Source: Saturnia japonica (taxonomy: Eukaryota; Arthropoda; Insecta; Lepidoptera; Saturniidae). From it: DNA of 64,000 nucleotides. The translations under genes and the position numbers were made by a program. Under the pieces are notes generated by a model that was not told the DNA's origin, searched no databases, and was given only the letters and a program-made list of their open reading frames with translations. Positions 19,596 to 55,467 of this stretch are shown piece after piece (within the stretch, counting starts at the first letter, position 1; each line of letters begins with the position of its first letter). Where the stretch lies: contig CM065334.1 in assembly GCA_033032175.1 (NCBI GenBank), positions 989,705 through 1,053,704 on the forward strand. Reading direction: 5' to 3'.

Positions 19596-21467
19596 CTAAC
19601 GGCCGTGGGGTCTTCCCGGATACGTCTCTTGAGTGTCCATAGCTTCTGGTTCTGCGCTAGCAGTGGCTGTTGCTGAAGCAAATGCCAGCAGGGCCCACAC
19701 TGTCATCATTGCGTACTTTACCTGAAATTGAAAATACTAAATATGTAGTTCTTATTATAAATATCTTATTTTAATTTAAATGCGATGGTGGGTTATCGGT
19801 AGTGACGTCAGACAACCTTGTCATTCGATGTGCGCTCTAACTCTAAAATGATTTCAGTAAAGAAAACAGCCTAATGACGACATAGCATGATTGTAAGATA
19901 TTATCTTATTGCTTGTCTGCCTAACATAACATAAATAACATGTCTTAACAAACTAAATAGGTAACTATATAATGTATCTATAACAATATTATAAAGAGGA
20001 AAGCTTCGATTTTTTGTTTGTAAAAGATAAATTCAAAACCTACTGGACTGATTTTAAAAATTCTTTCACCAATATAAAGCTGCAGTTTCAGCAAGTAATA
20101 TACGCTATATTATAATTTGAAAAGTTAATTTATTCCTCATAAAAATGTCGATAGTTTTACACAAAGTATAAAAAATTGCCTACACGGGTGTGTTGGCGAT
20201 GCTTGCCGAATAAAATGAACACGGGTGAAACCGTGGGGCACAGCTAGTAATTAATATAATAAAGCGGAAGAGTTATTTATTTGTTTAAACTACTAATCGG
20301 ATTTGAAAAATTCTTTTCGTAAATGATAGCCAAATTCACGAGGAATAGTATAGGCTATCTGACATTGGGATACAACTATCAGCTAAATTTAACTATTGAT
20401 TTTGCTAAGTAAATCTGAAGAGCAAGTGTTCCCGAACTGCTTTATCCGCGTGTTCTGGCGTACCTAATGCTGTATGTGTATTATGACTTTGACTCTGAAG
20501 ATGATCTTACATTGAAACATTTTCCGTAATAGAGGCCTTTCAGAAGAGAAGATTAACAAGTTCTTATCAAGCAATGAAAACATTGATTGTTGTCAGGAGC
20601 ACTTAACCGATGAAGACATAATGAGACTTAGAGGGAAAACGAAAAAGTATTAGAGGAATCGGAAGCAATTGTAAGGATTCCACAAACTCAACTTGTGTCT
20701 GCATTGAATGAATGCTTGGAATGTGCGAATCGAGTTTAACTACTTCTAATTTCAGAAAAGTTGATATTGCGTAAATTGAGGGATAAAGCATTTTCTTTAT
20801 CATTATAAACCAACAAACAAATTAAATCCAAGTTCAATATTATGATATATGCCTTGGTTATTGACTGCAACGACAAAGGGAGTGAAATCTAAACGGGTTC
20901 CAAGTTCAATGGTCAGTCCTGAAAATTATTTATAAAAACATCAAATATTTTATAAGAATTTAAAATATCATTTCTTCTTATAACTTAGGATAATATATTG
21001 AAACCTAAGGTCTGACTTTAAAGTGTAATAATACTTAATCTTTAATATTTGTATTTACTTTCAATTATAAAAATATATTCCATTATCAAAAAACACTTCT
21101 TAAAATATCTACACACTATAATCCGAACGCGTCATGAATACAAACAGGGTGTAAATTGTTGGTGTTTACATTATCGAGGCCCTACTGAATAGGTAAAGTA
21201 TGTTACCAATTAGCTAGGTATATCATAGCATACATAGCAAAGTAAACTTCTTTATAAATGTGGGGTGTTTATGAAATAATATATATATTGGTTTTTATGG
21301 GAAAAACAACTATGCCTTCATTTCTTATTTATGGAATGATTATAAAAACATACATTTTCCACGTAGGTTTCCGTACTCAATTATAAATCGTCTATATTCA
21401 AGTTTATACAATGTTTCACAAATGAAAATATTTAATGCATTATAATATTTCTACTTACAAAGTCCAT
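19596..21467 (-). CDS. Small secreted peptide gene, copy 1 (divergent), 44 aa
   Basis: Exon 1 is 21459-21467 (ATG GAC TTT) with donor GTAAGT; exon 2 is 19596-19721 after acceptor TTTCAG. The precursor begins MDFVKYAMMTVWALLAFASA, followed by TATASA, a clear signal peptide with an A-S-A cleavage site. After it come EPEA and then MDTQETYPGRPHGR. The last 14 residues differ strongly from the other six copies, while signal and EPEA are identical. No cysteines. Minus-strand AATAAA motifs follow the stop. TATATATA at 21517-21524 lies 32 bp before a TCACA initiator. A base change in the leader makes an out-of-frame upstream ATG unique to this copy. Family not recognised. Confidence 0.8.
19977..20247 (+). 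mobile_element. Non-autonomous Helitron-like insertion, intron of copy 1
   Basis: Starts TC after an A, ends CTAG before a T, with the 3' hairpin CACGGGTgaaACCGTG 12 bp inside the end: the three marks of a Helitron. 271 bp, no coding. Confidence 0.7.
20420..20745 (+). pseudogene. Degenerate coding-like fragment in the intron of copy 1
   Basis: Short plus-strand frames in different phases read VPELLYPRVLAYLMLYVYY, then EHLTDEDIMRL, then VSALNECLECANRV. The LTDEDI and acidic EE-rich pieces look a little like the end of a pogo/Tigger transposase, but this is a weak impression. Equivalent fragments lie near 27300, 34120, 39680, 48830 and 54380; copy 5 has lost it by a deletion at about 44640. 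Confidence 0.3.
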
Positions 21468-21487
21468 GTTTGCACATCACGTAGAAT

Positions 21488-21524
21488 TGTGACTAAAATA
21501 TATAAAAATTCCTCATTATATATA
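21488..21524 (-). promoter_or_regulatory. Core promoter of peptide gene copy 1
   Basis: Minus-strand TATATATA (21517-21524) and TCACAATT initiator-like sequence (start about 21492) with 32 bp spacing predict a leader of only about 24 nt. The same pair is present in all seven copies: TATA at 28392, 34932, 40795, 45454, 49938 and 55516 (left ends). Confidence 0.6.
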
Positions 21525-21778
21525 CGTTTCATTTACAGAAAAAATGAAAAAAGGAAGACAAATTTTATTATTATCATAAGAAAAACATCATTAATCATAA
21601 AAGTAAATACTTAACGAACCATGCTACCGCTTTGGACAATATTTTGAAAAATATTTAAATAATTATGCAATTAAAAAGTCCTGCCAAAAAGACTTAAAAT
21701 ACACACAATAAAAAGTTGTTATGGGACAACCGAGGAAACCTTTTAAGTATATTTTATAATCAACTGTATAAAATATAT

Positions 21779-21910: not shown

Positions 21911-22129
21911 GCCGATCAACCAAGACTGTGCGCTCTCGATTTTGTATAAATATTTTTTTGTTAAATTTCTATTGGAGATTTTGACCACAGACAGACATAG
22001 TACTTAAAATAATTTCTTTGTTAGATTTTCTGGAAATATATTTCATTTACCTTATCTCTCATTTTATTTTCCTTTTTAGGCTTATCTTTTTCTAAATTAT
22101 AACTAATCTTAATTGTCGTAACGTTTTGG

Positions 22130-24060
22130 CGTTTTTTTTTTTTTTTTTTAGTTTGTTTTCATAAACTTTTTTATAAATGGATATTTTTTCCAAGTTAGTA
22201 TGGAAATCATTTGAACAAAAAACGTATCTTTTCCTAAAGATACGGGAAAGTATGAAATTTAATTCAGGTCTTGTAATGCCAAATTCATTAACCATTTTGA
22301 AAGGGCAAAAATGTTAATTTCCGTTACAACTAATAAAGAATAAAAAGGTTAAAAACTGGGTATGGAAATATTAAAATTTTTTTGGATAAGTAGAAGATTT
22401 CATTTTAATATATTTAAAAAGCATCCATGTTAGTTTGGGTTACACAAAAACATCTAATCAAAAGTTTTAGGAAGCTTAATTAAAAAAGCTTTTGACGTGG
22501 CTGAACAATGGAGTCATTTTTTGTGCCTTGGACAGAAATGAAACTAAAAAGGAATTCATCCATTTAATCCCAAAAAATTAAAAACATGCCAGTAGCTGTT
22601 GGATGCCTCCACAACATGTGACCTTCAAATAAAAGTATTTTATCTTGAGTTATTAAAGGCCCAGTGTTGATGACACAAGTGCGCAGGACATAAGTGTGGA
22701 TCATTTTTTGGTGGCCCCTGTCCATTTGGTTACTACAACGGTCCTTGTTTGCATCCAGTTTGAAAATTTTTGCAATTAAAACAAATTAAAAACTTCTCCC
22801 GCCATACACCATCAAAGGTCTGGAACGTTTTGAGAAATATTTAAAACCTTACCAAAATAAAAAAGGTAACAAATGTGTCTGCTATCAATATTCCGTTGGT
22901 TGAATTGCCAAATCAGGGCACCAGCCCAATTGAAAAAGGGATAGGTACATTTTTTTGTAAGACCAAACCTATCGGAAATCCATGGAAACTGAAAACCGGC
23001 TGGCATCCCGGGATGGAATAATTTGGTGGGAAAGTATGTAAACAAGAAAGCAATAAACCTTGGCTATGGCACCATGTTAGCAAACCGCAAACTTTTTGAT
23101 TATTTAGAATAATGGAAGCATAATCAAAGAAGCGTATGATGTTTGTTAATAACTCTATTAATGTCTTGAGCTTAATAGAACCTATGTTATTATATTTATA
23201 AGTATAAGCCAATTAAATGTTATAATTATTAGGGCTAAGTCACATTTTTTTTTTACTATGCCACTAGACCTTTATTTGGGGAAATTTACCATGTGTTATT
23301 TTTAAAAAAGGGTTAGGCATCTCGGGACTGGCTTAAATCAGGGGGAGAAGGTTGGTGAGACCCAACACACGGAAGCATCCCCTTGGACTTGCCCTTGTTG
23401 AGGGTCGTAGATTACTTTTAATTTGATGTTTGGAATAAAACCATTTAATTAATTTACCTTTATTTGGAAGTTTTTTTTTAAATAAAACCTTTTTTTTCTT
23501 TACCCCATTTTAATCCAAATTTATTTTAATTTTTTAAAAAAATTCATTAAGCGTGTTTTGTAGTTTTTTTAACTATAGTTTTTTTCCGAAATCCTATATT
23601 ACGTTTATTTATGTAACTTATCCGAGAAATGGCATTTGGACGCCTTTCTCCTTGGTGAGATAGCCAGTTTGGTTCTTCTTCAAAATTTCATCTATTCAAC
23701 ATTGGTAATTATCCGGAAATAGATGTGGTGCGCTGGTATTTCTTTCTTGATATGCCAAAACACTACCTTTGGAAAACGAAAAATCCTAATCCTGGTTACC
23801 TAATAAGGATACGGGTTAATTTTGAATATTAATTGTATGGTCCTTGATAATTACCAAATTTTATTAATCCAACGTTTTAGGAGTCAAAATCAGTTAATTT
23901 CTTCTACAACTAAATACGCTTGAGCTAAAACTGTTAAAATTTACTCAATTCTTAATTCAAATTTATTATATTTATTTTTATTTTTAGTATTTTCTATAAT
24001 AACCTTCTTGAAAATATGGTTTTCAATAAAACGAATATTATGTTTATTTATCGAATATCG
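22130..24060. other. Suspected low-quality consensus
   Basis: Compared with the equivalent 29000-31230 and 35540-37770 segments, which agree with each other at most bases, this stretch has frequent one- to several-base losses and gains spread over integrase, LTR and family A sequence alike. Both ends of the noisy stretch fall inside otherwise well matched repeats. Confidence 0.65.
22420..23460 (+). pseudogene. Gypsy integrase and LTR fragment, copy a, scrambled
   Basis: Aligns by eye with the three cleaner copies (e.g. GTCCATTTGGTTACT and GTTTGCATCC remain), but has dozens of small deletions and a missing piece around the LTR start. The damage extends into both flanks, which suggests poor consensus rather than ageing. 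Confidence 0.6.
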
Positions 24061-25865: not shown

Positions 25866-26280
25866 GTGTTAAGAAAAAAATAAGTATTTTATTGCAAAAA
25901 AGCGTGCGGTGCTTTTTAAGATATTATCAGAATGATAATCCTTCGACTCATATCTGTCAAATAAAATATTTATAACTATTGACACCATGCACCCCACGTT
26001 TTTTTTTAGAATAAAATACATTTTTTTTTCTTATTTACAATATTCTTAATTTATATTTATTAGAAAAATTAACACTATTCTTCATTCAAATTTAATGTTA
26101 ATACTTTTGTAATCTGTTATCTGTAATGCTTTTGTTTTGTTCTCGACTGAATATACTAAGGTAAAAATAAAATGAAATAAAAAACAATATATTAAAGACA
26201 TTTTATTTATTAATAAAACCACCAATTGAAGGTATTCATATTAATAAAAATATTTATTTTTTTAATACCAAACGTCCCAA

Positions 26281-28343
26281 CTAACCGTCAAAGCGACCTT
26301 GTGGATAAGCAGAGGGCGCAGACTCTTGAGTGTTCAGAGCTTCTGGTTCTGCGCTAGCAGTGGCCGTTGCTGAAGCAAATGCCAGCAGGGCCCACACTGT
26401 CATCATTGCGTACTTTACCTGAAATTGAAAATACTAAATATGTAGTTCTTATTATAAGTATCTTATTTTAATTTAAATGCGATGGTGGGTTATCTATCGG
26501 TAGTGACGTCAGACAACTTCGTCATTCGATGTGCGCTCTAACTCTAAAATGATTTTAGTAAAGAAAACAGCCTAATGACGACATAGCATGATTGTAAGAT
26601 ATTATCTTATTGCTCGTCTGACTAGCTAACAATCTCCAGTTGAAAATCTATCGACATTCGTACTTGCAAGCCAACAGCATGCCTGTGTCTTACGCGATAG
26701 CGCCACTTAACGTCAGAGTTTGCCCATAAATTGACATCAAGAAGGGACATTTTTTATGGTATTTCATATCCATTATAGAAAGACAAATCCTCCGGATATT
26801 CGCATCAAGTTCATAATAACATGTCTTAACAAACTAAATAGGTAACTATATAATGTATCTATAACAATATTATAAAGAGGAAAGCTTCGATTTTTTGTTT
26901 GTAAAAGATAAATTCAAAACCTACTGGACTGATTTTAAAAATTCTTTCACCAATATAAAGCTGCAGTATCAGCAAGTAATATACGCCATATTATAATTTG
27001 AAAAGTTAATTTATTCCTCATAAAAATGACGATAGTTTTACACAAAGTATAAAAAATTGCCTACACGGGTGCGTTGGCGATGCTTGCCGTATAAAATTAA
27101 CACGGGTGAAACCGTGGGGCACAGCTAATACTTAATATAATAAAGCGGAAGAGTTATTTATTTGTTTAATCTACTAATCGGATTTGAAAATTACTTTTCG
27201 TAAATTATAGCCAAATTCACGAGGAATAGTATAGGCTATCTGACATTGGGATACAACTATCAGCTAAATTTAACTATTGATTTTGTTAAGTAAATCTGAA
27301 GAGCAAGTGTTCCCGAACTGCTTTATCCGCGTGTTCTGGCGTACCTAATGCTGTATGTGTATTATGACTTTGACTCTGAAGATGATCTTACATTAAAACA
27401 TTTTCCGTAATAGAGGCCTTTCAGAAGAGAAGATAAACAATTTCTTATCGAGCAATGAAACCATTGATTGTCAGGAGCACTTAACTGATGAAGACATAAT
27501 GAGACTTAGAACGAAAACGAAGAAGTATTAGAGGAATCGGAAGCAATTGTAAGGATTCCACAAACTCGACTTGTGTCTGCATTGAATGAATGCTTGGAAT
27601 GTGCGAATCGAGTTTAACTACTTCTAAATTCAGAAAAGTTGATATTGCGTAAATTGAGGGATAAAGCATTTTCTTTATCATTATAAACCAACAAACAAAT
27701 TAAATACAAGTTCAATATTATGATATATGCCTTGATTATTGACTGCAACGACAAAGGGAGTGAAATCTAAACGGGTTCCAAGTTCAATGGTCAGTCCTGA
27801 AAATTATTTATAAAAACATCAAATATTTTATAAGAATTTAAAATATCATTTCTTCTTATAACTTAGGATAATATATTGAAACCTAAGGTCTGACTTTAAA
27901 GTGTAATAATACTTAATCTTTAATATTTGTATTTACTTTCAATTATAAAAATATATTCCATTTCAAAAAACACTTCTTAAAATATCTACACACTATAATC
28001 CGAACGCGTCATGAAAACAAACAGGGTGTAAATTGTTGGTGTTCACATTATCGAGGCCCTACTGAATAGGTAAAGAATGTTACCAATTAGATAGGTATAT
28101 CATAGCATACATAGCAAAGTAAACTTCTTTATAAATGTGGGGTGTTTATGAAATAATATATATATTGGTTTTTATGGGAAAAACAACTATGCCTTCATTT
28201 CTTGTTTATGAAATGATTATAACAAAATACATTTTCCACGCAGGTTTCTGTACTCAATTAAAATCGTCTACATACAAGTTTATACAATGTTTCACAAATT
28301 AAAATATTTAATGCAAAATAATATTTCTACTTACAAAGTCCAT
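26281..28343 (-). CDS. Small secreted peptide gene, copy 2, 48 aa
   Basis: Exon 1 is 28335-28343, exon 2 is 26281-26418 (46 codons with stop). Signal peptide identical to copy 1; the tail after EPEA is LNTQESAPSAYPQGRFDG. It ends in Gly, unlike copies 4-7, which end in Arg. Splice signals and TATA (28392-28399) are intact. The two X-Pro/X-Ala dipeptides EP and EA before the tail resemble spacers removed stepwise by dipeptidyl peptidases in insect antimicrobial and venom precursors (established for cecropins and melittin; inference here). Confidence 0.82.
26858..27128 (+). mobile_element. Helitron-like insertion, intron of copy 2
   Basis: Same site and length as in copy 1; here the 3' end reads CTAA, still within the CTRR consensus. 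Confidence 0.65.
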
Positions 28344-29029
28344 GTTTGCAGATCACGTAGAATTGTGAGTAAAATATATCAAATTTCTCATTATATATAC
28401 GTTTCATTTTCAGAAAAAACGAAAAAAGGAAAACAAATTTTATTATTATAAAATGAAAAACATCATTAATCATAAAAGTAAATACTTAACGAACCGTGCT
28501 ACCGCTTTGGACAATGTTTTGAAAAATATTTAAATAATTATGCAATTAAAAAGTCCTGCCAGAAAGACTTAAAATACACACAATAAAAAGTTGTTATGGG
28601 ACAACCGAGGAAACCTTTTAACTATATTTTTTAATCAACTATATAAAATATATGTAATTTTCATATTGAATCTCGCCTGGCGGTACCCCTGTTGCTGTGT
28701 TGACTTGCTGAGGCGATGGTACCCGTTGCGAGCCTACATTGATCCGTTGGCTGGAGGTGACAACTCCTGGTGCGAGTTACCCTAAGCCGATCAACCAAGA
28801 CTGTGCGATATCGATTTTGTATATTTTTTTGTTAAAATTCTATTGGAGATTTTGACCACAGACAGACATAGTACTTAAAAGGATTTCTTTGTTAGATTTT
28901 CTGGAAATATATTTAATTTACCTTATCTCTCATTTTATTTTCCTTTTTAGGCTTATCTTTTTCTAAATTATAACTAATCTTAATTGTCGTAACGTTTTCG
29001 CGTTTTTAGTTTTCCATACTATTATTTAT

Positions 29030-29432: not shown

Positions 29433-29509
29433 TGTTAGTGTTGGGATGCATACACCACAAAACATGCATACATTCCAAAAGTTTTAAGGAAGTCAGTCTT
29501 ATCTGAGTT

Positions 29510-30412
29510 ACATAAAAGCCATTTTGGCACAGTGCGCATGAAACAAGTGGCACGCTCATTTTTCTGGTGGCCCGCTGTGGACACTGAAATAGAAACCATA
29601 ACTAACAACTGTCTGAATTGCCTATCCATTCGTAATGCCCCACAAAAAGCATTCAAAAATCATGGCCAGTAGCACCATCAGTCTGGTATCGCCTCCATGC
29701 AGACTACTGTGGACCGTTCTATAATAAAATGTACTTGTTAGTCGTTGACAGTTATTCAAATTGGCCCGAGGTGGTTGAATTGAACACAATCAGTGCAGCG
29801 AGGACCATTGAAGTGTTGGATACATTGTTTTCGAGACATGGCTACCCTGTCCATTTGGTTACTGACAACGGTCCTTCGTTTGCATCCCAGGAGTTTGAAA
29901 ATTTTTGCAATTTAAAACAAATTAAACATACCTTCTCCCCGCCGTATCATCCAGCTACAAACGGGGCTGCAGAACGTTTTGTAGAAATATTTAAAACTCA
30001 TGTAACCAAAATCAAAGAAAGCGGTAACAAAATGATGTCTGCTATCAACTTATTCCTGTTTGACTATAGAACTATGCCTCATAGTACTACAGGCGTCACT
30101 CCAGCCCAACTTATGTATAAAAGGGAACTAAGGTCACGATTTTCTTTGTTAAGACCGCAACCTATTGCGGAAAAATCAATGGAAATGCTAGAGAAACAGG
30201 CTAGGACATCCTCGGGCACAAGGCAAGTTAGTTTCAGGGTGGGAGAGAAGGTAATGGTGAGGGACTACAGGAAAGGCAATAAACCTTGGACTATGGGCAC
30301 CATTGTTGAGGTGTCAATACCAGACACAACTTATTTGATTGATGTTGATGGAAGTAAGTGGAAGAGGCATGTTAATCAAATGATGAGCTGTAGTGATAGT
30401 TTGTTAGAATAA
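29510..30412 (+). pseudogene. Gypsy integrase, copy b, frameshifted
   Basis: The open part starts at 29729 and reads 227 codons. It contains the core with VVDSYSNWPEV, LVTDNGPSF (second Asp) and PPYHPATNGAAERFVE (Glu). The zinc-binding part upstream (HKSHFGTVRMK, CLNCLS) is one base out of frame because a base present in copy d at 51180 is missing here. Confidence 0.8.
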
Positions 30413-33099: not shown

Positions 33100-34883
33100 C
33101 TAACCGTCAAAGCGACCTTGTGGATAAGCAGAGGGCGCAGACTCTTGAGTGTTCAGAGCTTCTGGTTCTGCGCTAGCAGTGGCCGTTGCTGAAGCAAATG
33201 CCAGCAGGGCCCACACTGTCATCATTGCGTACTTTACCTGAAATTGAAAATACTAAATATGTAGTTCTTATTATAAGTATCTTATTTTAATTTAAATGCG
33301 ATTGTGGGTTATCTATCGGTAGTGACGTCAGACAACCTCGTCATTCGATGTGCGCTCTAACTCTAAAATGATTTTAGTAAAGAAAACAGCCTAATGACGA
33401 CATAGCATGATTGTAAGATATTATCTTATTGCTCGTCTGGCTAGCTAACAATATCCAGTTGAAAATCTATCGACATTCGTACTTGCAAGCCAACAGCATG
33501 TCTGTGTCTTACGCGATAGCACCACTTAACGTCAGAGTTTGCCCATAAATTGACAGCAAGAAGGGACATTTTTTATGGTATTTCATATCCATTATAGAAA
33601 GATAAATCCTCCGGATATTCGCATCTAGTTCATAATAACATGTCTTAACAAACTAAATAGGTAACTATATAATGTATCTATAACAATATTATAAAGAGGA
33701 AAGCTTCGATTTTTTGTTTGTAAAAGATAAATTCAAAACCTACTGGACTGATTTTAAAAATTCTTTCACCAATATAAAGCTGCAGTATCAGCAAGTAATA
33801 TACGCTATATTATAATTTGAAAAGTTAATTTATTCCTCATAAAAATATCGATAGTTTTACACAAAGTATAAAAAATTGCCTACACGGGTGTGTTGGCGAT
33901 GCTTGCCGTATAAAATGATCACGGGTGAAACCGTGGGGCACAGCTAGTACTTAATATAATAAAGTGGAAGAGTTATTTATTTGTTTAAACTATTAATCGG
34001 ATTTGAAAAATACTTTTCGTAAATGATAGCCAAATTCACGAGGAATAGTATAGGCTATCTGACATTGGGATACAACTATCAGCTAAACTTAACTATTGAT
34101 TTTGTTAAGTAAATCGGAGGTGCAAGTGTTCCTGAATTGCTTTATCCGCGTGTTCTGGCGTACCTAATGCTGTATGTGTATTATGACTTTCACTCTGAAG
34201 ACAATCTTACATTAAAACATTTTCCGTAATAGAGGCCTTTCAGAAGAGAAGATAAACAATTTCTTATCGAGCAATGAAACCATTGATTGTCAGGAGCACT
34301 TAACCAATGAACACATAATGAGACTTAGAACGAAAACGAAGAAGTATTAGAGGAATCGGAAGCAATTGTAAGGATTCCACATACTCGACTTGTGTCTGCA
34401 TTGAATGTGCGAATCGAGTTTAACTACTTCTAATTTCAGAAAAGTTGATATTGCGTAAATTGAGGTATAAAGCATTTTCTTTATCATTGTAAACCAACAA
34501 ACAAATTAAATCCAAGTTCAATATTATGATATATGCCTTGGTTATTGACTACAACGACAAAGGGAGTGAAATCTGAACGGGTTCCAAGTTCAATGGTCAG
34601 TCCTGAAAATAGTTTATAACAACTTAAAATATCATTTATCAAATATCATAGCAAAGTAAACTTATATATAAATGTGGGGTGTTTATGAAATAATATATAT
34701 ATATTGATTTTTATGGGAAAAACAACTATGCCTTCATTTCTTATTTATGAAATGATTATAAAAACATAAATTTTCCACGTAGGTTTCCGTACTCAATTAT
34801 AAATCGTCTATATTCAAGTTTATACAATGTTTCACAAATTAAAATATTTAATGCAAAATAATATTTTTACTTACAAAGTCCAT
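33100..34883 (-). CDS. Small secreted peptide gene, copy 3, 48 aa
   Basis: Exon 1 is 34875-34883, exon 2 is 33100-33237. The protein is identical to copy 2, including the Gly end. TATA at 34932-34939. The intron is about 280 bp shorter than in copy 2, mainly because a stretch after the coding-like fragment is missing. Intron keeps the roughly 190-bp block with CTAACAAT..CCAGTTGAAA absent from copies 1 and 6. Confidence 0.82.
33677..33947 (+). mobile_element. Helitron-like insertion, intron of copy 3
   Basis: TC start, CTAG end, hairpin slightly changed (ATCACGGGT on the left arm). Confidence 0.65.
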
Positions 34884-35973
34884 GTTTGCAGATCACGTAG
34901 AATTGTGACTAAAATATATCAAATTCCTCATTATATATACGTTTCATTTTCAGAAAAAATGAAAAAAGGAAGACAAATTTTATTATTATCAAAAGAAAAA
35001 CATCATTAATCATAAAAGTAAATACTTAACGAACCATGCTACCGCTTTGGTCGATGTTTTGAAAAATATTTAAATAATTATGCAATTAAAAAGTCCTGCC
35101 AAAAAGACTTAAAATACACACAATAAAAAGTTGTTATGGGACAACCGAGGAAACCTTTTAACTATATTTTATAATCCTTTATAAAATATATCTAATTTTC
35201 ATATTGAATCTCGGCTGACGATACCCCTGCTGCTGTGTTGACTACCTGAGGCGATGGTACCCGTTGCGAGCCTACATTGATCCGTTGGCTGGAGGTGACA
35301 ACTCCTTGTGCGAGTTACCCTAAGCCGATCAACCAAGACTGTGCGATTTCAATATTGTATAAACATTTTTTTGTTAAAATTCTATTGGAGATTTTGACCA
35401 CAGACAGACATAGTACTTAAAATAATTTCTTTGTTAGATTTTCTGGAAATATATTTAATTTACCTTATCTCTCATTTTATTTTCCTTTTTAGGCTTATCT
35501 TTTTCTAAATTATAACTAATCTTAATTGTCGTAACGTTTTCGCGTTTTTAGTTTTTCAGACTATTATTTATTTTTCACGTTTAGTTGGATTTTCTATAAA
35601 AGTGTGTTTTCACTAAAATCGGGAAGTCAGTGATGTTTATTCCAAGTTAGTAACTCGCGCAAAGACACTACCAATTTAGGAAAACAAAAAATCGCTAATC
35701 CTGATTATCCTAGTAAGGGTAACGGGTCTAAATGAATGAAATATTAATTATCATCGGTCCTTGATAAGTATGCCAAATTTCGAGTTAATCCGACGTTTTG
35801 AAAGGGGTCAAAATCATGTTCAAGTTTCCGTTACAAACATACTAATATAAGTATGAAGCTAATAAAAATGTGTTAAAAACCGTGGGCTGCATGGAGTCAT
35901 TAGTTATAAATATTTTATTGACAGATATGAGTAGAAGGATTATCATTTTAATAATATATTAAAAAGCACTCCA

Positions 35974-38656: not shown

Positions 38657-40746
38657 CTAACGGTCAAAGCGACCTTGTGGATAAGCAGAGGGCGCAGACT
38701 CTTGAGTGTTCAGAGCTCCTGGTTCTGCGCTAGCAGTGGCCGTTGCTGAAGCAAATGCCAGCAGGGCCCACACTGTCATCATTGCGTACTTTACCTGAAA
38801 TTGAAAATACTAAATATGTAGTTCTTATTATAAGTATCTTATTTGAATTTAAATGCGATGGTGGGTTATCTATCGGTAGTGACGTCATACAACCTCGTCA
38901 TTCGATGTGCGCTCTAACTCTAAAATGATTTTAGTAAAGAAAACAGCCTAATGACGACATAGCATGATTGTACGATATTATCTTATTGCTCGTCTGGCTA
39001 GCTAACAATCTCCAGTTGAAAATCTATCGACATTCGTACTTGCAAGCCAACAGCATGTCTGTGTCTTACGCGATAGCGCCACTTAACGTCAGAGTTTGCC
39101 CATAAATTGACAGCAAAAAGGGACGTTTTTTATGGTATTTCATATCCATTATAGAAAGACAAATCCTCCGGGTATTCGCATCTAGTTCATAATAACATGT
39201 CTTAACAAACTAAATAGATAACTATATAATGTATCTATAACAATATTATAAAGAGGAAAGCTTAGATTTTTTGTTTGTAAAAGATAAATTCAAAACCTAC
39301 TGGACTGATTTTAAATATTCTTTCACCAATATAAAGCTGCAGTATCAGCAAGTAATATAATTTGAAAAGTTAATTTATTTCTCATAAAAATGACGATAGT
39401 TTTACACAAAGTATTAAAAATTGCCTACACGGGTGTGTTGGCGATGCTTGCAGAATAAAATTAACACGGGTGATACTATGGGGCACAGCTAGTACTTAAT
39501 ATAATAAAGCGGAAGAGTTATTTATTTGTTTAATCTACTAATCGGATTTGAAAAATACTTTTCGTAAATGATAGCCAAATTCACGAGGAATAAATAGTAT
39601 AGGCTATCTGACATTGGGATACAACTATCAGCTAAATTTAACTATTGATTTTGCTAAGTAAATCTGAAGAGCAAGTGTTCCCGAACTGCTTTATCCGCGT
39701 GTTCTGGCGTACTTAATGCTGTATGTGTATTATGAATTTGACTCTGAAGATGGTCTTAGATTAAAACATTTTCCGTAATAGAGACCTTTCAGAAGAGGAG
39801 ATTAACATGTTCTTATCAAGCAATGAAAACATTGATTGTCAGGAGCACTTAACCGATGAAGACATAATGAGACTTAGAGCGAAAACGAAGAAGTATTAGA
39901 GGAATCGGAAGCAATTGTAAGGATTCCACATACTCGACTTGTGTCTGCATTGAATGAATGCTTGGAATGTGCGAATCGAGTTTAACTACTTTATATTTCA
40001 GATAAAATGATATTGCGTAAATTGAGGGATAAAGCATTTTCTTTGTCATTATAAACCACTCGTCAAAGTACTACCATCAAAAACATAAATGTGAAATGAA
40101 AGCCAAGTTCAATATTATGATATATGCCTTGGTTATTGACTTCAACGACAAAGGGAGTGAGATCTAAACGGGTGCCAAGTTCAATGGTCAGTCCTGAAAA
40201 TTATTTATAAAAACATCAAATATTTTATAAGAATTTAAAATATTATATCATTTCTTCTTATAACTTAGGATAATATATTGAAACCTAAGGTCTGACTTTA
40301 AAGTGTAATAATACTTAATCTTTAATATTTGTATTTACTTTCAATTATAAAAATATATTCCATTACAAAAAACACTTCTTAAAATATCTACACACTATAA
40401 TCCGAACGCGTCATGAATACAAACAGGGTGTAAATTGTTGGTGTTCTCATTATCGAGGCCCTACTGAATAGGTAAAGTATGTTACCAATTAGATAGGTAT
40501 ATCATAGCATACATAGCAAAGTAAACTTCTTTATAAATGTGGGGTGTTTACAAAATAATATATATATTGGTTTTTATAGGAAAAACAACTATGCCTTCAT
40601 TTCTTATTTATGAAAGGATTATAACAACATACATTTTCCACGCAGGTTTCCGTACTCAATTATAAATCGTCTACATACAAGTTTATACAATGTTTCACAA
40701 ATTAAAATATTTAATGCAAAATAATATTTCTACTTACAAAGTCCAT
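38657..40746 (-). CDS. Small secreted peptide gene, copy 4, 48 aa
   Basis: Exon 1 is 40738-40746, exon 2 is 38657-38794. The spacer tetrapeptide is EPGA rather than EPEA (E29G), and the tail ends GRFDR rather than GRFDG. All else equals copy 2. TATA at 40795-40802. First copy, from the left, with a type B spacer beyond its promoter. Confidence 0.82.
39234..39492 (+). mobile_element. Helitron-like insertion, intron of copy 4
   Basis: Same insertion as the others, shortened by 12 bp in the middle; the same shortening is present in copy 5. Confidence 0.65.
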
Positions 40747-41189
40747 GTTTGCAGATCACGTAGAATTGTGACTAAAATATATCAAATTCCTCATTATATA
40801 TACGTTTCATTTTCAGAAAAAATGAAAAAAGGAAGACAAATTTTATTATTATCAAAGGAAAAACATCATTAATTATAAAATAAATACTTAACGAACCGTG
40901 CTGCCGCTTTGGACAATGTTTTGAAAAATATTTAAATAATTATGCAATTAAAAAGTCCTGCCAAAAAGACTTAAAATACACACAATAATAAGTTGTTATG
41001 GGACAACCGAGGAAACCTTTTAACTATATTTTATAATCAACTATATAAAATATATCTAATTTTCATATTGAATCTCGGCTGGCGATACCCCTGCTGCTGT
41101 GTTGACTACCTGAGGCGATGGTACCCGTTGCGAGCCTACATTGATCCGGTGGCTGGAGGTGACAACTCCTGGTGCGAGTTACCCTAAGC

Positions 41190-43672: not shown

Positions 43673-45405
43673 CTAACGGTCAAAGCGACCTTGTGGATAA
43701 GCAGAGGGCGCAGACTCTTGAGTGTTCAGAGCTTCTGGTTCCGCGCTAGCAGTGGCCGTTGCTGAAGCAAATGCGAGCAGGGCCCACACTGTCATCATTG
43801 CGTACTTTACCTGAAATTGAAAATACTAAAACTGTAGTTCTTATATAAGTATCTTATTTTAATTTAAATGCGATGGTGGGTTATCGGTAGTGACGTCAGA
43901 CAACCTCGTCATTCGATGTGCGCTCTAACTCTAAAATGATTTCAGTAAAGAAAACAGCCTAATGATGACATAGCATGATTGTAAGATATTATCTTATTGC
44001 TCGTCTGGCTAGCTAACAATCTCCAGTTGAAAATCTATCGACATTCGTACTTGCAAGCCAACTGCATGTCTGTCTTACGCGATAGCGCCACTTAACGTCA
44101 GAGTTTGCCCATAAATTGACAGCAAGAAAGGACATTTTTATGGTATTTCATATCCATTATAGAAAGACAAATCCTCCGGGTATTCGCATCTAGTTCATAA
44201 TAACATGTCTTAACAAACTAAATAGATAACTATATAATGTATCTATAACAATATTATAAAGAGGAAAGCTTAGATTTTTTGTTTGTAAAAGATAAATTCA
44301 AAACCTACTGGACTGATTTTAAATATTCTTTCACCAATATAAAGCTGCAGTATCAGCAAGTAATATAATTTGAAAAGTTAATTTATTCCTCATAAAAATG
44401 ACGATAGTTTTACACAAAGTATAAAAAATTGCCTACACGGGTGTGTTGGCGATGCTTGCCGTATAAAATTAACACGGGTGATACCGTGGGGCACAGCTAG
44501 TACTTAATATAATAAAGCGGAAGAGTTATTTATTTGTTTAATCTACTAATCGGATTTGAAAAATACTTTTCGTAAATGATAGCCAAATTCACGAGGAATA
44601 GTATAGGCTATCTGACATTGGGATACAACTATCAGCTAAATTTAATTTAATTTAATTTCAGATAAAATGATATTGCGTAAATTGAGGGATAAAGCATTTT
44701 CTTTGTCATTATACACCACTCGTCAAAGTACTACCATCAAAAACATAAATGTGAAATGAAAGCCAAGTTCAATATTATGATATATGCCTTGGTTATTGAC
44801 TTCAACGACAAAGGGAGTGAGATCTAAACGGGTGCCAAGTTCAATGGTCAGTCCTGAAAATTATTTATAAAAACATCAAATATTTTATAAGAATTTAAAA
44901 TATTATATCATTTCTTCTTATAACTTGGATAATATATTGAAACCTAAGGTCTGACTTTAAAGTGTAATAATACTTAATCTTTAATATTTGTATTTACTTT
45001 CAATTATAAAAATATATTCCATTTCAAAAAACACTTCTTAAAATATCTACACACTATAATCCGAACGCGTCATGAATACAAACAGGGTGTAAATTGTTGG
45101 TGTTCACATTAACGAGGCCCTACTGAATAGGTAAAGTATGTTACCAATTAGATAGGTATATCATAGCATACATAGCAAAGTAAACTTCTTTATAAATGTG
45201 GGGTGTTTATGAAATAATATATATATTGGTTTTTATAGGAAAAACAACTATGCCTTCATTTCTTATTTATGAAAGGATTATAACAACATACATTTTCCAC
45301 GCAGGTTTCCGTACTCAATTATAAATCGTCTACATACAAGTTTATACAATGTTTCACAAATTAAAATATTTAATGCAAAATAATATTTCTACTTACAAAG
45401 TCCAT
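43673..45405 (-). CDS. Small secreted peptide gene, copy 5, 48 aa
   Basis: Exon 1 is 45397-45405, exon 2 is 43673-43810. Ends GRFDR with EPEA spacer. Two silent changes in the signal-peptide/spacer region, one of them (CTC for Leu) shared with copy 6. The intron has lost about 370 bp including the degenerate coding-like fragment. TATA at 45454-45461. Confidence 0.82.
44242..44500 (+). mobile_element. Helitron-like insertion, intron of copy 5
   Basis: TC start, CTAG end; shares the 12-bp internal deletion of copy 4. Confidence 0.65.
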
Positions 45406-45849
45406 GTTTGCAGATCACGTAGAATTGTGACTAAAATATATCAAATTCCTCATTATATATACGTTTCATTTTCAGAAAAAATGAAAAAAGGAAGACAAAT
45501 TTTATTATTATCAAAGGAAAAACATCATTAATTAAAAAAAAGAAATACTTAACGAACCGTACTACCGCTTTGGACAATATTTTGAAAAATATTTAAATAA
45601 TTATGCAATTAAAAAGTCCTGCCAAAAAGACTTAAAATACACACAATAAAAAGTTGTTATGGGACAACCGAGGAAACCTTTTAACTATATTTTATAATCA
45701 ACTATATAAAATATATCTAATTTTCATATTGAATCTCGGCTGGCGATACCCCCGCTGCTGTGTTGACTACCTGAGGCGATGGTACCCGTTGCGAGCCTAC
45801 ATTGATCCGGTGGCTGGAGGTGACAACTCCTCTGCGAGTTACCCTAAGC

Positions 45850-48000: not shown

Positions 48001-49889
48001 CTAACGGTCAAAGCGACCTTGTGGATAAGCAGAGGGCGCAGACTCTTGAGTGTTCAGAGCTTCTGGTTCTGCGCTAGCAGTGGCCGTTGCTGAAGCAAAT
48101 GCGAGCAGGGCCCACACTGTCATCATTGCGTACTTTACCTGAAATTGAAAATACTAAATATGTAGTTCTTATTATAAATATCTTATTTTAATTTAAATGC
48201 GATGGTGGGTTATCGGTAGTGACGTCAGACAACCTTGTCATTCGATGTGCGCTCTAACTCTAAAATGATTTCAGTAAAGAAAACAGCCTAATGACGACAT
48301 AGCATGATTGTAAGATGTTATCTTATTGCTTGTCTGCCTAACATAACATAAATAACATATCTTAACAAACTAAATAGATAACTATATAATGTATCTATAA
48401 CAATATTATAAAGAGGAAAGCTTCGATTTTTTGTTTGTAAAAGATAAATTCAAAACCTACTGGACTGATTTTAAAAATTCTTTCGCCAATATAAAGCTGC
48501 AGTATCAGCAAGTAATATACGCTATATTATAATTTGAAAAGTTAATTTATTCCTCATAAAAATATCGATAGTTTTACACAAAGTATAAAAAATTGCCTAC
48601 ATGGGTGTGTTGGCGATGCTTGCCGTATAAAATGAACACGGGTGAAACCGTGGGGCACAGCTAGTACTTAATATAATAAAGCGGAAGAGTTATTTATTTG
48701 TTTAATCTACTAATCGGATTTGAAAAATTCTTTTCGTAAATGATAGCCAAATTCAGGAGGAATAGTAAAGGCAATCTGACATTGGGATACAACTATCAGC
48801 TAAACTTAACTATTGATTTTGTTAAGTAAATCGGAGGTGCAAGTGTTCCTTAACTGCTTTATCCGCGTGTTCTGGCGTACCTAATGCTGTATGTGTATTA
48901 TGACTTTGACTCTGAAGATGAGCTTACATTAAAACATTTTCCGTAATAGAGGCCTTTCAGAAGAGAAGATAACAATTTCTTATCGAGCAATGAAACCATT
49001 GATTGTCAGGAGCACTTAACCGATGAAGACATAATGAGACTTAGAGCGAAAACGAAGAAGTATTAGAGGAATCGGAAGCAATTGTAAGGATTCCACAAAC
49101 TCGACTTGTGTCTGCATTGAATGAATGCTTGGAATGTGCGAATCGAGTTTAACTACTTCTAATTTCAGAAAAGTTGATATTGCGTAAATTGAGGGATAAA
49201 GCATTTTCTTTATCACTATAAACCAACAAACAAATTAAATCCAAGTTCAATATTATGATATATGCCTTGGCTATTGACTTCAACGACAAAGGGAGTGAGA
49301 TCTAAACGGGTGCCAAGTCAATGGTCAGTCCTGAAAATTATTTATAAAAACATCAAATATTTTATAAGAATTTAAAATATCATTTCTTCTTATAACTTAG
49401 GATAATATATTGAAACCTAAGGTCTGACTTTAAAGTGTAATAATACTTAATCTTTAATATTTGTATTTACTTTCAATTACAAAAATATATTCCATTTCAA
49501 AAAACACATCTTAAAATATCTACACTACAATCCGAACGCGTCATGAATACGAACAGGGTCTAAATTTTGTGTGTTCGGATTATCGAGGTCCTACTGAATA
49601 GGTAAAGTATGTTACCAATTAGATAGGTATATCATAGCATACATAGCAAAGTAAACTTCTTTATAAATGTGAGGTGTTTACAAAATAATATATATATATA
49701 TATATATATTGATTTTTATGGGAAAAAATAACTATGCCTTTATTTCTTGTTTATGAAATGATTATAACAAGATACATTTTCCACGCAGGTTTCCGTACTC
49801 AATTATAAATCGTCTACATACAAGTTTATACAATGTTTCACAAATTAAAATATTTAATGCAAAATAATATTTCTACTTACAAAGTCCAT
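48001..49889 (-). CDS. Small secreted peptide gene, copy 6, 48 aa
   Basis: Exon 1 is 49881-49889, exon 2 is 48001-48138. Protein identical to copy 5 and sharing its silent CTC codon. The 3' half of the intron, however, lacks the 190-bp block like copy 1 (junction TTGTCTGCCTAACATAACAT), and its spacer is type A. The gene is therefore a mosaic. TATA at 49938-49945. Confidence 0.82.
48394..48664 (+). mobile_element. Helitron-like insertion, intron of copy 6
   Basis: Full length (271 bp) like copies 1-3, unlike the shortened form in neighbouring copy 5. Confidence 0.65.
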
Positions 49890-50973
49890 GTTTGCAGATC
49901 ACGTAGAATTGTGACTAAAATATATCAAATTTCTCATTATATATACGTTTCATTTTCAGAAAAAAGGAAAACAAATTTTATTATTATAAAATGAAAAACA
50001 TCATTAATCATAAAAGTAAATACTTAACGAACCGTGCTACCGCTTTGGACAATGTTTTGAAAAATATTTAAATAATTATGCAATTAAAAAGTCCTGCCAA
50101 AAAGACTTAAAATACACACAATAAAAAGTTGTTATTGGACAACCGAGGAAACCTTTTAACTATATTTTTTAATCAACTATATAAAATATGTGTAATTTTC
50201 ATATTGAATCTCGCCTGGCGATACCCCTGCTGCTGTGTTGACTACCTGAGGCGATGGTACCCGTTGCGAGCCTACATTGATCCGTTGGCTGGAGGTGACA
50301 ACTCCTGGTGCGAGTTACCCTAAGCCGATCAACCAAGACTGTGCGATTTCGATCTTGTATAAACATTTTTTTGTTAAAATTCTATTGGAGATTTTGACCA
50401 CAAACAGACATAGTACTTAAAATAATTTCTTTGTTAGATTTTCTGGAAATATATTTAATTTACCTTATCTCTCATTTTATTTTCCTTTTTAGGCTTATCT
50501 TTTTCTAAATTATAACTAATCTTAATTGTCGTAACGTTTTCGCGTTTTTAGTTTTTCATACTATTATTTATTTTTCACGTTTAGTTGGATTTTCTATAAA
50601 AGTGTGTTTTCACTAAAATCGGGAAGTCAGTGATGTTTATTCCAAGTTAGTAACTCGCGCAAAGACACTACCAATTTAGGAAAACAAAAAATCGCTAATC
50701 CTGATTATCCTAGTAAGGATAACGGGTCTAAATGTATGAAATATTAATTATCATCGGTCCTTGATAAGTATGCCAAATTTCGAGTTAATTCGACGTTTTG
50801 AAAGGGGTCAAAATCATGTTCAAGTTTCCGTTACAAACATACTAATATAAGTATGAAGCTAATAAAAATGTGTTAAAAACCGTGGGCTGCATGGAGTCAT
50901 TAGTTATAAATATTTTATTGACAGATATGAGTAGAAGGATTATCATTTTAATAATATATTAAAAAGCACTCCA

Positions 50974-52383: not shown

Positions 52384-52794
52384 GTTTTTTTATAATAAAA
52401 CACTTTTTTTTCTTATACCCCATTCTTAATCCAAATTTATTTTCAATTTTTTAGATGGTTTTTCTATAAAAGCGTGCTTTTTAGTTTTTTTTTAATTATT
52501 ATTTATTTTTCATTTTTAAAAAGAATTTTCTATAAAAGCGTGTTTTGTAGTTTTTTCCACCGAAATCCTATATTGACGTTTATTCTAAGTCAGTAACTTA
52601 TCCGAGAAATGAGCAATTTGGGCGCCTTCTGCCTCCCTTGGATGAGAGAGCCAGTTCTCAGGTTCCTCCTTCGAAAATTTCATCTTATTCCACGTTGGTA
52701 ATTATCCGAGAAATAGGTGATCGGTGCGCCTGGTACTTTCTCTTCTTGATATTGGCGCAAAGACACTACCATTTTAGGAAAACGAAAAATCGCT

Positions 52795-52985
52795 AATCCT
52801 GGTTATCGTAATAAGGATAACGGGTAAAACTGTTTGAAATATTGAATTGTCATCGGCCCTTGATAATTATGCCAAATTTTGAGTTAATCCGACGATTTGA
52901 AAGGGGGCAAAATCATGTTCAAAGTTTCCGTTACATATATACTGACAATCGTATTAAGCTAATAAAAGCGTGTTAAGAAAAAAAA
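52795..52985 (+). repeat. 327-bp repeat, single partial unit
   Basis: Only one marker motif (about 52918) remains in this spacer. Confidence 0.7.
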
Positions 52986-53382
52986 AAGTATTTTATTGCA
53001 AAAAAGCGTGCGGTGCTTTTTAAGATATTATCAGAATGATAATCCTTCGACTCATATCTGTCAAATAAAATATTTATAACTATTGACACCATGCACCCCA
53101 CGCTTTTTTCACAATAAAATACATTTTTTTATCTTATTTACAATATTATTAATTTATATTTATTAGAAAAATTAACACTATTCTTCATTCAAATTTATTG
53201 TTAATACTTTTGTAATCTGTTATCTGTATGCTTTTGTTTTGTTCTCGACTGAATATACTAAGGTAAAAATAAAATGAAATAAAAAACAATATATTAAAGA
53301 CATTTTATTTATTAATAAAACAACCAATTGAAGATATTCATATTAATAAAAATATTTATTTTTTTAATACCAAACGTCCCAA

Positions 53383-55467
53383 CTAACGGTCAAAGCGACC
53401 TTGTGGATAAGCAGAGGGCGCAGACTCTTGAGTGTTCAGAGCTTCTGGTTCTGCGCTAGCAGTGGCCGTTGCTGAAGCAAATGCCAGCAGGGCCCACACT
53501 GTCATCATTGCGTACTTTACCTGAAATTGAAAATACTAAAACTGTAGTTCTTATTTTAATTTAAATGCGATGGTGGGTTATCGCTAGTGACGTCAGACAA
53601 CCTCGTCATTCGATGTGCGCTCTAACTCTAAAATGATTTCAGTAAAGAAAACAGCCTAATGATGACATAGCATGATTGTAAGATATTATCTTATTGCTCG
53701 TCTGGCTAGCTAACAATCTCCAGTTGAAAATCTATCGACATTCGTACTTGCAAGCCAACTGCATGTCTGTCTTACGCGATAGCGCCACTTAACGTCAGAG
53801 TTTGCCCATAAATTGACAGCAAGAAAGGACATTTTTATGGTATTTCATATCCATTATAGAAAGACAAATCCTCCGGGTATTCGCATCTAGTTCATAATAA
53901 CATGTCTTAACAAACTAAATAGATAACTATATAATGTATGTATAACAATATTATAAAGAGGAAAGCTTCGATTTTTTGTTTGTTAAAGATAAATTCAAAA
54001 CCTACTGGACTGATTTTAAAAATTCTTTCACCAATATAAAGCTGCAGTATCAGCAAGTAATATACGCTATATTATAATTTGAAAAGTTAATTTATTCCTC
54101 ATAAAAATGTCGATAGTTTTACACAAAGTATAAAAAATTGCTTACACGGGTATGTTGGCGATGCTTGCCGTATAAAATTAACACGGGTGATACCGTGGGG
54201 CACAGCTAGTACTTAATATAATAAAGCGGAAGAGTTATTTATTTGTTTAATCTACTAATCGGATTTTAAAAATACTTTTCGTAAATGATAGCCAAATTCA
54301 CGAGGAATAAATAGTATAGGCTATCTGACATTGGGATACAACTATCAGCTAAACTTAACTATTGATTTTGTTAAGTAAATCGGAGGTGCAAGTGTTCCTG
54401 AACTGCTTTATCCGCGTGTTCTGGCGTACCTAATGCTGTATGTGTATTATGACTTTGACTCTGAAGATGAGCTTACATTAAAACATTTTCCGTAATAGAG
54501 GCCTTTCAGAAGAGGAGATAAACAATTTCTTATCGAGCAATGAAACCATTGATTGTCAGGAGCACTTAACCGATGAAGACATAATGAGACTTAGAACGAA
54601 AACGGAGAAGTATTAGAGGAATCGGAAGCAATTGTAAGGATTCCACAAACTCTTGTCTCAAACTTGTGTCTGCATTGAATGAATGCTTGGAATGTGCGAA
54701 TCGAGTTTAACTTCTTTTAATTTCAGATAACATGATATTGCGTAAATTGAGGGATAAAGCATTTTCTTTGTCATTATAAACCACTCGTCAAAGTACTACC
54801 ATCAAAAACATAAATGTGAAATGAAAGCCAAATTCAATATTATGATATATGCCTTGGTTATTGACTTCAACGACAAAGGGAGAGAGATCTAAACGGGTGC
54901 CAAGTTCAATGGTCAGTCCTGAAAATTATTTATAAAAACATCAAATATTTTATAAGAATTTAAAATATCATTTCTTCTTATAACTTAGGATAATATATTG
55001 AAACCTAAGGTCTAACTTTAAAGTGTAATAATACTTAATCTTTAATATTTGTATTTACTTTCAATTATAAAAATATATTCCATTTCAAAAAACACTTCTT
55101 AAAATATCTACACACTATAATCCGAACGCGTCATGAATACGAACAGGGTCTAAATTTTGTGTGTTCGGATTATCGAGGCCCTACTGAATAGGTAAAGTAT
55201 GTTACCAATTAGATAGGTATATCATAGCATACATAGCAAAGTAAACTTCTTTATAAATGTGGGGTGTTTACAAAATAATAATATATATTGATTTTTATGG
55301 GAAAAACCACTATGCCTTCATTTCTTATTTATGAAAGGATTATAACAACATAAATTTTCCACGCAGGTTTCCGTACTCAATTATAAATCGTCTACATACA
55401 AGTTTATACAATGTTTCACAAATTAAAATATTTAATGCAAAATAATATTTCTACTTACAAAGTCCAT
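53383..55467 (-). CDS. Small secreted peptide gene, copy 7, 48 aa
   Basis: Exon 1 is 55459-55467, exon 2 is 53383-53520. Same protein as copies 5 and 6 but with the CTG Leu codon of copies 1-4. TATA at 55516-55523. The degenerate coding-like fragment is kept in the intron. Last complete gene of the array; its upstream flank is a type B spacer without the SINE. Confidence 0.82.
53939..54209 (+). mobile_element. Helitron-like insertion, intron of copy 7
   Basis: Full length, but the 5' terminal TC has changed to TG. Confidence 0.6.

What the first reader, a model, noticed from the sequence alone, without database searches (positions are those of the whole stretch)
19596..55467. Seven intact tandem genes for an unrecognised cysteine-free secreted peptide
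Seven two-exon genes encode precursors of 44-48 residues with a textbook signal peptide. All exons, splice sites and TATA boxes are intact while introns and spacers carry indels and dead transposons, so purifying selection on coding parts is likely. The genes are below usual ORF-length cutoffs and exon 1 codes only three residues, so automated annotation would probably miss them. I cannot match them to cecropin, moricin, ENF or other lepidopteran peptides I know.
Basis: partly seen in the sequence, partly recalled or inferred. Interest (0 to 1): 0.88.

Follow-up and report, generated by a model that had tools for sequence, protein, structure and literature searches.

The report
Moth family of hypervariable secreted peptides
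The seven tiny genes belong to a family of about a hundred gene copies in one moth genome that share the same secretion tag but end in very different short peptides, an arrangement like that of cone-snail toxins and frog-skin peptides and apparently not annotated before.

Summary
The seven two-exon genes are real, intact and exactly where reported, on the minus strand. They are a small part of something larger. The window's own 580-Mb moth genome holds 109 loci matching exon 2, on seven chromosome-sized contigs; 90 have a matching three-codon exon-1 site upstream and 100 keep an open frame. Signal peptide and acidic pro-region are conserved, but the last 4-12 codons form a core that differs between subfamilies: QDYWPPL, VNLPFMYGR, QMFPPFGR, SAYPQGRFDR, PACFGPFGSLCV and others. 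In five close pairs picked for different cores, nonsynonymous change is 1.2% in the leader and 30% in the core, against 5.0% in non-coding flanks. In four subfamilies (named by core) the core hardly varies. Of distinct cores, 7 of 19 that follow a proline begin with Gln and 11 of 26 end in Gly or Gly-Arg, which predicts post-proline release, pyroglutamate and amidation. No relative turned up in a protein collection containing nr and UniRef, in Pfam, in PDB or in the open papers searched. Best reading: a diversifying library of short extracellular peptides. Expression, processing and target are untested.

The parts
19596..19721 (-). gene 1 exon 2 coding part (41 codons + stop); core GRPHGR at 19599-19616
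21459..21467 (-). gene 1 exon 1 coding part (MDF)
21488..21524 (-). gene 1 TATA box (21516-21524) to TCACA initiator-like site (21488-21492)
26281..26418 (-). gene 2 exon 2 coding part; core SAYPQGRFDG at 26284-26313
28335..28343 (-). gene 2 exon 1 coding part (MDF)
28364..28399 (-). gene 2 TATA box to initiator-like site
33100..33237 (-). gene 3 exon 2 coding part; core SAYPQGRFDG at 33103-33132
34875..34883 (-). gene 3 exon 1 coding part (MDF)
34904..34939 (-). gene 3 TATA box to initiator-like site
38657..38794 (-). gene 4 exon 2 coding part; core SAYPQGRFDR at 38660-38689
40738..40746 (-). gene 4 exon 1 coding part (MDF)
40767..40802 (-). gene 4 TATA box to initiator-like site
43673..43810 (-). 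gene 5 exon 2 coding part; core SAYPQGRFDR at 43676-43705
45397..45405 (-). gene 5 exon 1 coding part (MDF)
45426..45461 (-). gene 5 TATA box to initiator-like site
48001..48138 (-). gene 6 exon 2 coding part; core SAYPQGRFDR at 48004-48033
49881..49889 (-). gene 6 exon 1 coding part (MDF)
49910..49945 (-). gene 6 TATA box to initiator-like site
53383..53520 (-). gene 7 exon 2 coding part; core SAYPQGRFDR at 53386-53415
55459..55467 (-). gene 7 exon 1 coding part (MDF)
55488..55523 (-). gene 7 TATA box to initiator-like site

Best explanation
The seven genes are members of a large family of secreted peptide precursors in a moth. Each gene makes one precursor, mostly 37-51 residues: a three-codon exon 1, then a signal peptide, an acidic pro-region of about 12 residues, and a short C-terminal core running to the stop codon. 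Shown from sequence: about a hundred copies, shared promoter and splice structure, a conserved leader, and a core that hardly varies among close copies but is very different between subfamilies. Inferred: signal peptidase cuts after A-x-A; a post-proline (or, on C26, a monobasic) cut releases the core; a leading Gln becomes pyroglutamate; a trailing Gly or Gly-Arg becomes an amide. The product would be a peptide of about 4-12 residues, often blocked at one or both ends, acting outside the cell on a receptor, channel or microbe. Tandem duplication followed by bursts of selected change makes new cores, as in conotoxins and frog-skin peptides. Which tissue and target are involved is open. The cores average near-zero charge, so I favour receptor or channel ligands (defensive, reproductive or signalling) over classic cationic antimicrobials.
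For: Family: 109 of 109 scored candidates match the exon-2 protein at E<=1 in the own genome (ten lie between 0.025 and 1). 100 of 109 keep an exon-2 frame of at least 33 codons, in 60 distinct proteins. Exon-1 patterns: 77 and 75 sites, reversed-pattern controls 0 and 0; together 96 distinct sites. 90 of 109 exon 2s have one within 6 kb upstream on the same strand, using 88 of the 96 sites (two sites serve two exon 2s). All 11 upstream regions read on C7, C15, C23, C26 and C31 have a TATA-like element before exon 1 (10 of the 11 were chosen by their exon-1 match, the C26 one was read blind). Selection: 5 independent close pairs give pN 0.012 in the leader, flank 0.050, pN 0.297 in the core; core N vs flank p=3e-13, leader N vs flank p=0.001. 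Without picking pairs (1576 pairs of 65 distinct sequences): at flank divergence below 0.03 the core differs by 0.010-0.014; at 0.10-0.15 the leader differs by 0.070 and the core by 0.360. Capping: 7 of 19 proline-preceded cores start with Q (0.96 expected, 0 of 20000 shuffles reach it); 11 of 26 cores end in G or GR (3.5 expected, 0 of 20000).
Against: No transcript, peptide or species comparison was available. The five pairs were chosen because their cores differ. Core N against core S alone is not significant (p=0.10), and core S is somewhat raised over flank (p=0.06), so part of the core change may be mutational or by conversion. Core boundaries were set by eye from the conserved proline, and 12 of 100 genes have no such boundary. 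Constancy of cores within subfamilies is partly circular because subfamilies were picked by core string; leader vs core variable codons give p=0.05. In a leader tree of 67 rows (18 of 64 inner branches well supported) the VNLPFMYGR copies do not form one group, so leader and core histories may differ. 15 of 26 cores do not end in G or GR and 12 of 19 do not begin with Q. 19 of 109 exon 2s had no exon 1 found. Signal peptides were judged by eye; no SignalP was available. Some copies may be assembly duplicates (15 of 109 lie on four small contigs).
Confidence: 0.72

Rival explanations
1. The mature product is the whole stretch after the signal peptide (about 16-25 residues, EPEA...core). There is no cut after the proline, and the hypervariable C-terminus is the recognition or effector end of a haemolymph, gut or antimicrobial peptide.
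For: No processing enzyme is shown. An A-x-A before EPE is seen in many leaders. Gene 2 ends FDG and gene 4 FDR within one array, which does not fit strict amidation. Known lepidopteran antimicrobial peptides are also released by signal cleavage and N-terminal trimming (recalled).
Against: Among the 19 proline-preceded cores, 7 of 8 Gln stand at the first residue after the proline, which makes sense if that residue becomes an N-terminus. Among close copies the pro-region tolerates replacements while the core hardly varies.
Confidence: 0.22
2. Amplified relic: a recently multiplied repeat whose tail drifts without function, the leader looking conserved only because the copies are young or homogenised.
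For: 9 of 109 loci are broken or truncated. The sampled array DNA is rich in transposons. Two VNLPFMYGR copies have lost the exon-1 ATG.
Against: 100 of 109 frames are open. Leader nonsynonymous change lies below flank (p=0.001) while the core lies far above it (p=3e-13). The core hardly varies among close copies. TATA element, splice sites and, in the window genes, the poly(A) signal are kept.
Confidence: 0.05
3. Cores are swapped mainly by recombination or gene conversion between paralogs, or by small indels, rather than by selection on point mutations. The family is a shuffled cassette system.
For: The gene 1 versus genes 2-7 block of difference covers the core and about 30 nt of adjacent 3'UTR while most of the intron is about 94-96% alike. 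Synonymous core change is raised. VNLPFMYGR copies fall in several places in the leader tree.
Against: In several close pairs the changes are scattered substitutions, 5-10 nonsynonymous with 0-2 synonymous, with the flank little changed, for example C7:7085k/7037k with 3 of 140 flank sites. No donor copy was identified.
Confidence: 0.2
4. The seven genes are a conventional small antimicrobial peptide family of the cecropin, moricin or ENF type, only divergent.
For: Small secreted precursors in a tandem array with TATA promoters.
Against: No Pfam family passes its cut-off (four precursors). Net side-chain charge of 26 cores averages +0.15. Cores are 4-12 residues, too short for a cecropin-like helix pair (recalled).
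Confidence: 0.04

Closest known systems
Conopeptide gene superfamilies (Conus; PMC7900195, passages read)
   Same: Conserved signal peptide, pro-region and hypervariable mature peptide; many small-exon genes (133 in C. betulinus; 109 loci here).
   Different: No sequence relation found. Most cores here have no cysteine and only 4-12 residues; two exons with a three-codon first exon; a moth, with no venom organ known to me for this group.
[quoted passage not shown]
   Same: Conserved signal, acidic propiece, mature peptide to the stop codon, great mature diversity.
   Different: FSAP peptides follow an X-Arg site, X usually Lys; here a proline precedes the core in most members (C26 has Pro-Arg). 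PF03032 was not matched.
Adipokinetic hormone/corazonin-related peptides that occur in limacodid venoms (PMC11187147, passages read)
   Same: Predicted pyroGlu start, aromatic residues and amide end in some cores (pyroGlu and amide in that family are recalled).
   Different: The mature peptide follows the signal directly in that family (recalled); here a pro-region lies between, and cores share no common motif.
Fungal MSDIN and other core-variable ribosomal peptides (recalled)
   Same: Proline-delimited, short, often hydrophobic hypervariable core after a constant leader.
   Different: Here there is a secretory signal, no follower peptide, and no evidence of cyclisation.
Lepidopteran cecropin, moricin and ENF peptides
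   Same: Small secreted precursors, often in tandem arrays (recalled).
   Different: No profile match; near-neutral short cores.

Membership tests
Conserved-leader, hypervariable-core secreted peptide families (a kind, not a homology group) | Signal and pro-region much more conserved than the mature part across paralogs | tested here: met
Conserved-leader, hypervariable-core secreted peptide families (a kind, not a homology group) | Expression in a secretory gland and release of the mature peptide | not testable with these tools
   no RNA or peptide data held
Frog skin active peptides (PF03032) | Match to the PF03032 profile | tested here: not met
   four precursors against all Pfam at E<=10; only DUF5408 and DUF1145 below their cut-offs
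Frog skin active peptides (PF03032) | X-Arg (usually Lys-Arg) cleavage site before the mature part | tested here: not met
   AP, SP, VP, EP or YP precedes the core; only C26 has Pro-Arg
Conopeptides | Sequence relation to a known conopeptide | tested here: not met
   Searches (Pfam; PDB; collection holding nr and UniRef) show no relative of any kind
Conopeptides | Cysteine frameworks in the mature peptide (recalled) | tested here: not met
   two cysteines in 10 of 11 open C26 members; otherwise single cysteines in C15:10584k and C15:10593k among open members
Cecropin, moricin, ENF and other Pfam peptide families | Profile match over the curated cut-off | tested here: not met
   four precursors
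Amidated and pyroGlu-blocked peptides | C-terminal Gly or Gly-basic, N-terminal Gln at the cut | tested here: inconclusive
   enriched but not universal, and processing is not shown

The most novel reading that the evidence does not exclude
A moth lineage runs a conotoxin-like genetic library: about a hundred copies of one gene with a frozen secretion leader and a fast-diversifying 4-12-residue core, cut after proline and capped by pyroglutamate and amide, giving dozens of different short ligands from one family that annotation has missed.
Probability: 0.5. Interest if true: 0.9.

Novelty: new variant of a known kind. Interest (0 to 1): 0.78.

Why it matters
Large families with a fixed leader and a hypervariable core are the hallmark of evolved chemical arsenals and have yielded many receptor ligands and drugs. 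One in a moth, absent from the protein sets searched here, would show that such libraries also hide below annotation cut-offs in ordinary insect genomes. The family gives a direct test bed for how new short ligands arise, since close gene pairs with different cores can be compared base by base.

Tried and rejected
Tried without result. Protein collection search with one precursor and with an alignment of 20 members: none. Viral contigs: 105 stretches matched a pattern, none confirmed. PDB sequences: none. Pfam: nothing over cut-off for four precursors. Rfam and tRNA scans of the window: none. Ten literature searches, one of them for sequence words of leader and cores, listed nothing that matches; open-licence PMC only, no preprints. 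Wider searches of the genome with a C26 and a C15 member gave no loci beyond the 109.

Considered and rejected: that the seven genes are a single conserved peptide (gene 1 already differs in its core); that the C-terminus differs because of a third exon (3'UTR and poly(A) signal follow the stop directly in the window genes; alternative splicing is not excluded); that the moth is a stinging limacodid or saturniid (the COX1-like copy is nearest to geometrid moths, although 92-97% identity to all 120 listed entries makes this weak). MAFFT's gap for gene 1 hid that TYP aligns to SAP, so its core is GRPHGR and not YPGRPHGR. The four IMWP genes look like shortened relatives of the IIWPELVGR core. 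Whether C31 is a sex chromosome was not settled; contig lengths fit the smallest of 31.
Full report
What was checked. The window contains seven two-exon genes, all on the minus strand, at the stated places. Exon 1 codes MDF. Exon 2 codes VKYAMMTVWALLAFASATATASAEPEALNTQESAPSAYPQGRFDR (genes 5-7), the same ending FDG (genes 2, 3), a version with E to G in the pro-region (gene 4), and in gene 1 VKYAMMTVWALLAFASATATASAEPEAMDTQETYPGRPHGR. Each gene has TATATATAA 31-32 nt before TCACA, and AATAAATAAAA 69 nt after the stop. The units are tandem duplicates; aligned stretches are about 88-98% alike, most above 93%. Among genes 2-7 the CDS varies at 4 of 147 sites against 169 of 1977 intron sites (p=0.011), and promoter, CDS and 3'UTR together at 8 of 307 (p=8e-5). 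Absence of indels in the CDS alone is not significant (p=0.41). With gene 1 included, the post-signal part varies more than the intron (16 of 63 vs 180 of 1981 columns, p=2e-4). Of 18 stop-to-stop frames of 100 codons or more listed in the window I scanned 7 against Pfam: 5 carry retroelement domains and 2 match nothing.

The family. The window is part of contig C31 (9.2 Mb) of a 580-Mb genome with 402 contigs. The contig lengths read run from 29.9 Mb (C1) to 9.2 Mb (C31), then drop to 0.3 Mb at C32, which fits 31 chromosomes. A search with the exon-2 protein found 109 matching places among 109 scored candidates at E<=1: 47 on C31, 28 on C15, 12 on C26, 3 on C7, 2 on C25 (both broken), 1 each on C23 and C6, and 15 on four small contigs. 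I fetched exon 2 of all of them (plus the window). 100 of 109 keep an open frame of at least 33 codons, in 60 distinct proteins; nine are broken or truncated. One counted as open, on C6, lacks the AG acceptor, and one on C15 runs on to 68 codons. Searches with a C26 and a C15 member found no further places. Exon-1 patterns (up to 3 and 1 mismatches) gave 77 and 75 sites, 96 distinct, with no match to the reversed control patterns. Of 109 exon 2s, 90 have an exon-1 site within 6 kb upstream on the same strand, using 88 of the 96 sites; two sites serve two exon 2s each, 19 exon 2s have none and 8 sites have no exon 2. The 11 upstream regions read on C7, C15, C23, C26 and C31 all have a TATA-like element before the exon-1 ATG; the initiator is not recognisable in two C15 ones. 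Ten of the 11 were chosen by their exon-1 match; the C26 one was read blind and also holds MNF|GTAAGT.

Conserved leader, hypervariable core. From the first residue of exon 2 to a proline at about position 35 most of the proteins are alike across chromosomes; after it they are not. Cores include QDYWPPL (22 copies), GGVAGVWV/IWV (11), VNLPFMYGR (8), SAYPQGRFDR/G (6), LRMLPLGG (4), IIWPELVGR, QMFPPFGR, QSWPTVGR, QNEIFDIFP, MDGWPSL, IFWGADHGR, IYWGVDRVH, QLIPLGRL, QIIFLLSR, QGAWDRILG, KLPFRPFRR, YFAEPYYGYGV, and on C26, after MPR, PACFGPFGSLCV, PFCTGALISFCG, PICTAALASLCG, PDCFHWDIFCN, PACMPLDIFCT, PICMGPLDTICF and SVSSAATISLAG. In five independent pairs of close paralogs with different cores, nonsynonymous change is 5 of 405 sites in the leader and 33.3 of 112 in the core, against 34 of 683 sites in non-coding flank. 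Core N exceeds flank (p=3e-13) and leader N lies below flank (p=0.001). Core N against core S is not significant (p=0.10), and core S is slightly raised over flank (p=0.06). These pairs were picked because the cores differ, so I also took all 1576 pairs with the same boundary position among 65 distinct sequences (88 of 100 genes have a P or MPR boundary; 12 dropped). At flank divergence of 0-1, 1-3, 3-6, 6-10 and 10-15% the leader differs by 1.7, 2.3, 3.4, 5.7 and 7.0% and the core by 1.0, 1.4, 3.8, 18.2 and 36.0%. So the core is held in young copies and then replaced abruptly. Within four core-defined subfamilies, 23 of 140 leader codons but 1 of 34 core codons vary in amino acid (p=0.05), with the reservation that subfamilies were named by core. 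A leader tree of 67 rows resolves only 18 of 64 inner branches well; many core groups come together, but VNLPFMYGR copies fall in several places, which leaves room for recombination between leader and core.

Likely processing. In many members an A-x-A precedes EPE, a textbook signal cleavage site judged by eye. Of 19 distinct proline-preceded cores, 7 begin with Gln, 0.96 being expected from shuffling within cores (0 of 20000 shuffles reach 7). Of 26 distinct cores, 11 end in Gly or Gly-Arg, 3.5 expected (0 of 20000). I set the boundaries by the conserved proline or MPR and merged one-residue variants (FDG under FDR, GIWV under GVWV). Genes without such a boundary were left out of these counts; three of the core types left out end in Gly. 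The simplest reading is release after the proline, pyroglutamate at Gln, and amidation at Gly or Gly-Arg; 12 of 19 and 15 of 26 cores lack the respective sign. Net side-chain charge of the 26 cores averages +0.15, unlike cationic antimicrobials. All of this is inference from sequence.

What animal. A COX1-like copy on C11 (446 codons open under the invertebrate mitochondrial code) is 97% identical to the best geometrid moth COX1 and 92-97% to the 120 listed entries, nearly all named as Lepidoptera (7998 candidates were scored). I conclude a moth or butterfly, most likely a moth near geometrids; the family name is weak. Literature searches of open-licence PMC papers listed no matching report; passages only were read in PMC11335235, PMC11187147, PMC13334177, PMC7900195 and PMC12664280.

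Comparison. It works like conopeptides and frog-skin active peptides: fixed signal, acidic pro-region, hypervariable mature peptide. It is not a member of either by any test made here. The seven window genes are therefore ordinary members of an unusual family.

Verdict. Observation confirmed; interpretation enlarged and corrected. Architecture and family: strong. Selection on core and leader: good, with the reservations given. Processing: plausible. Function: open.

Noticed in passing
window 24051-25984, 31197-32803, and single or double copies near 37737, 42769, 47430 and 52789: A 327-bp tandem repeat lies between the genes, with very different copy number between otherwise similar units.
   Followed up: no
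window 29636-30412, 36177-36650, 51028-51954 (+): The same retroelement integrase fragment sits in three spacers, so the insertion was probably carried along in the duplication of the units (Pfam on the first copy only).
   Followed up: partly
window 57791-62818 (+) and 208-3879 (-): Long open frames of a BEL/Pao-type and a Gypsy-type element flank the array (the type names rest partly on recall).
   Followed up: partly
window 13459-13986: Short tandem repeat block, copies over 91% alike.
   Followed up: no
L011:2063-2728 (C31:22063-22728): Ribonuclease T2 open frame (Pfam E=3e-29) in the transposon-dense start of C31; of 10 frames scanned out of 37 listed, 6 matched retroelement-type families and 3 nothing.
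   Followed up: no
L140 (C11:2669937-2671274): Nearly full-length COX1 with the mitochondrial code and no stop inside a chromosome-sized contig: a recent nuclear copy of mitochondrial DNA or a mis-join.
   Followed up: partly
C31:443407, 661305, 723175, 806928, 967213; C98:36548; C15:10534784; C21:11296318: Exon-1-type sites without a recognised exon 2 within 6 kb downstream; possible further members with diverged or lost exon 2, or chance.
   Followed up: no
C31:602273 and 618665 (minus): Two VNLPFMYGR copies have lost the ATG of exon 1; exon 2 still offers in-frame ATGs.
   Followed up: no
L049-L051, L120-L126 (C26): 10 of 11 open C26 members have two-cysteine cores, P-x-C-(6 or 7)-C-x after MPR, a possible small disulfide ring.
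   Followed up: partly
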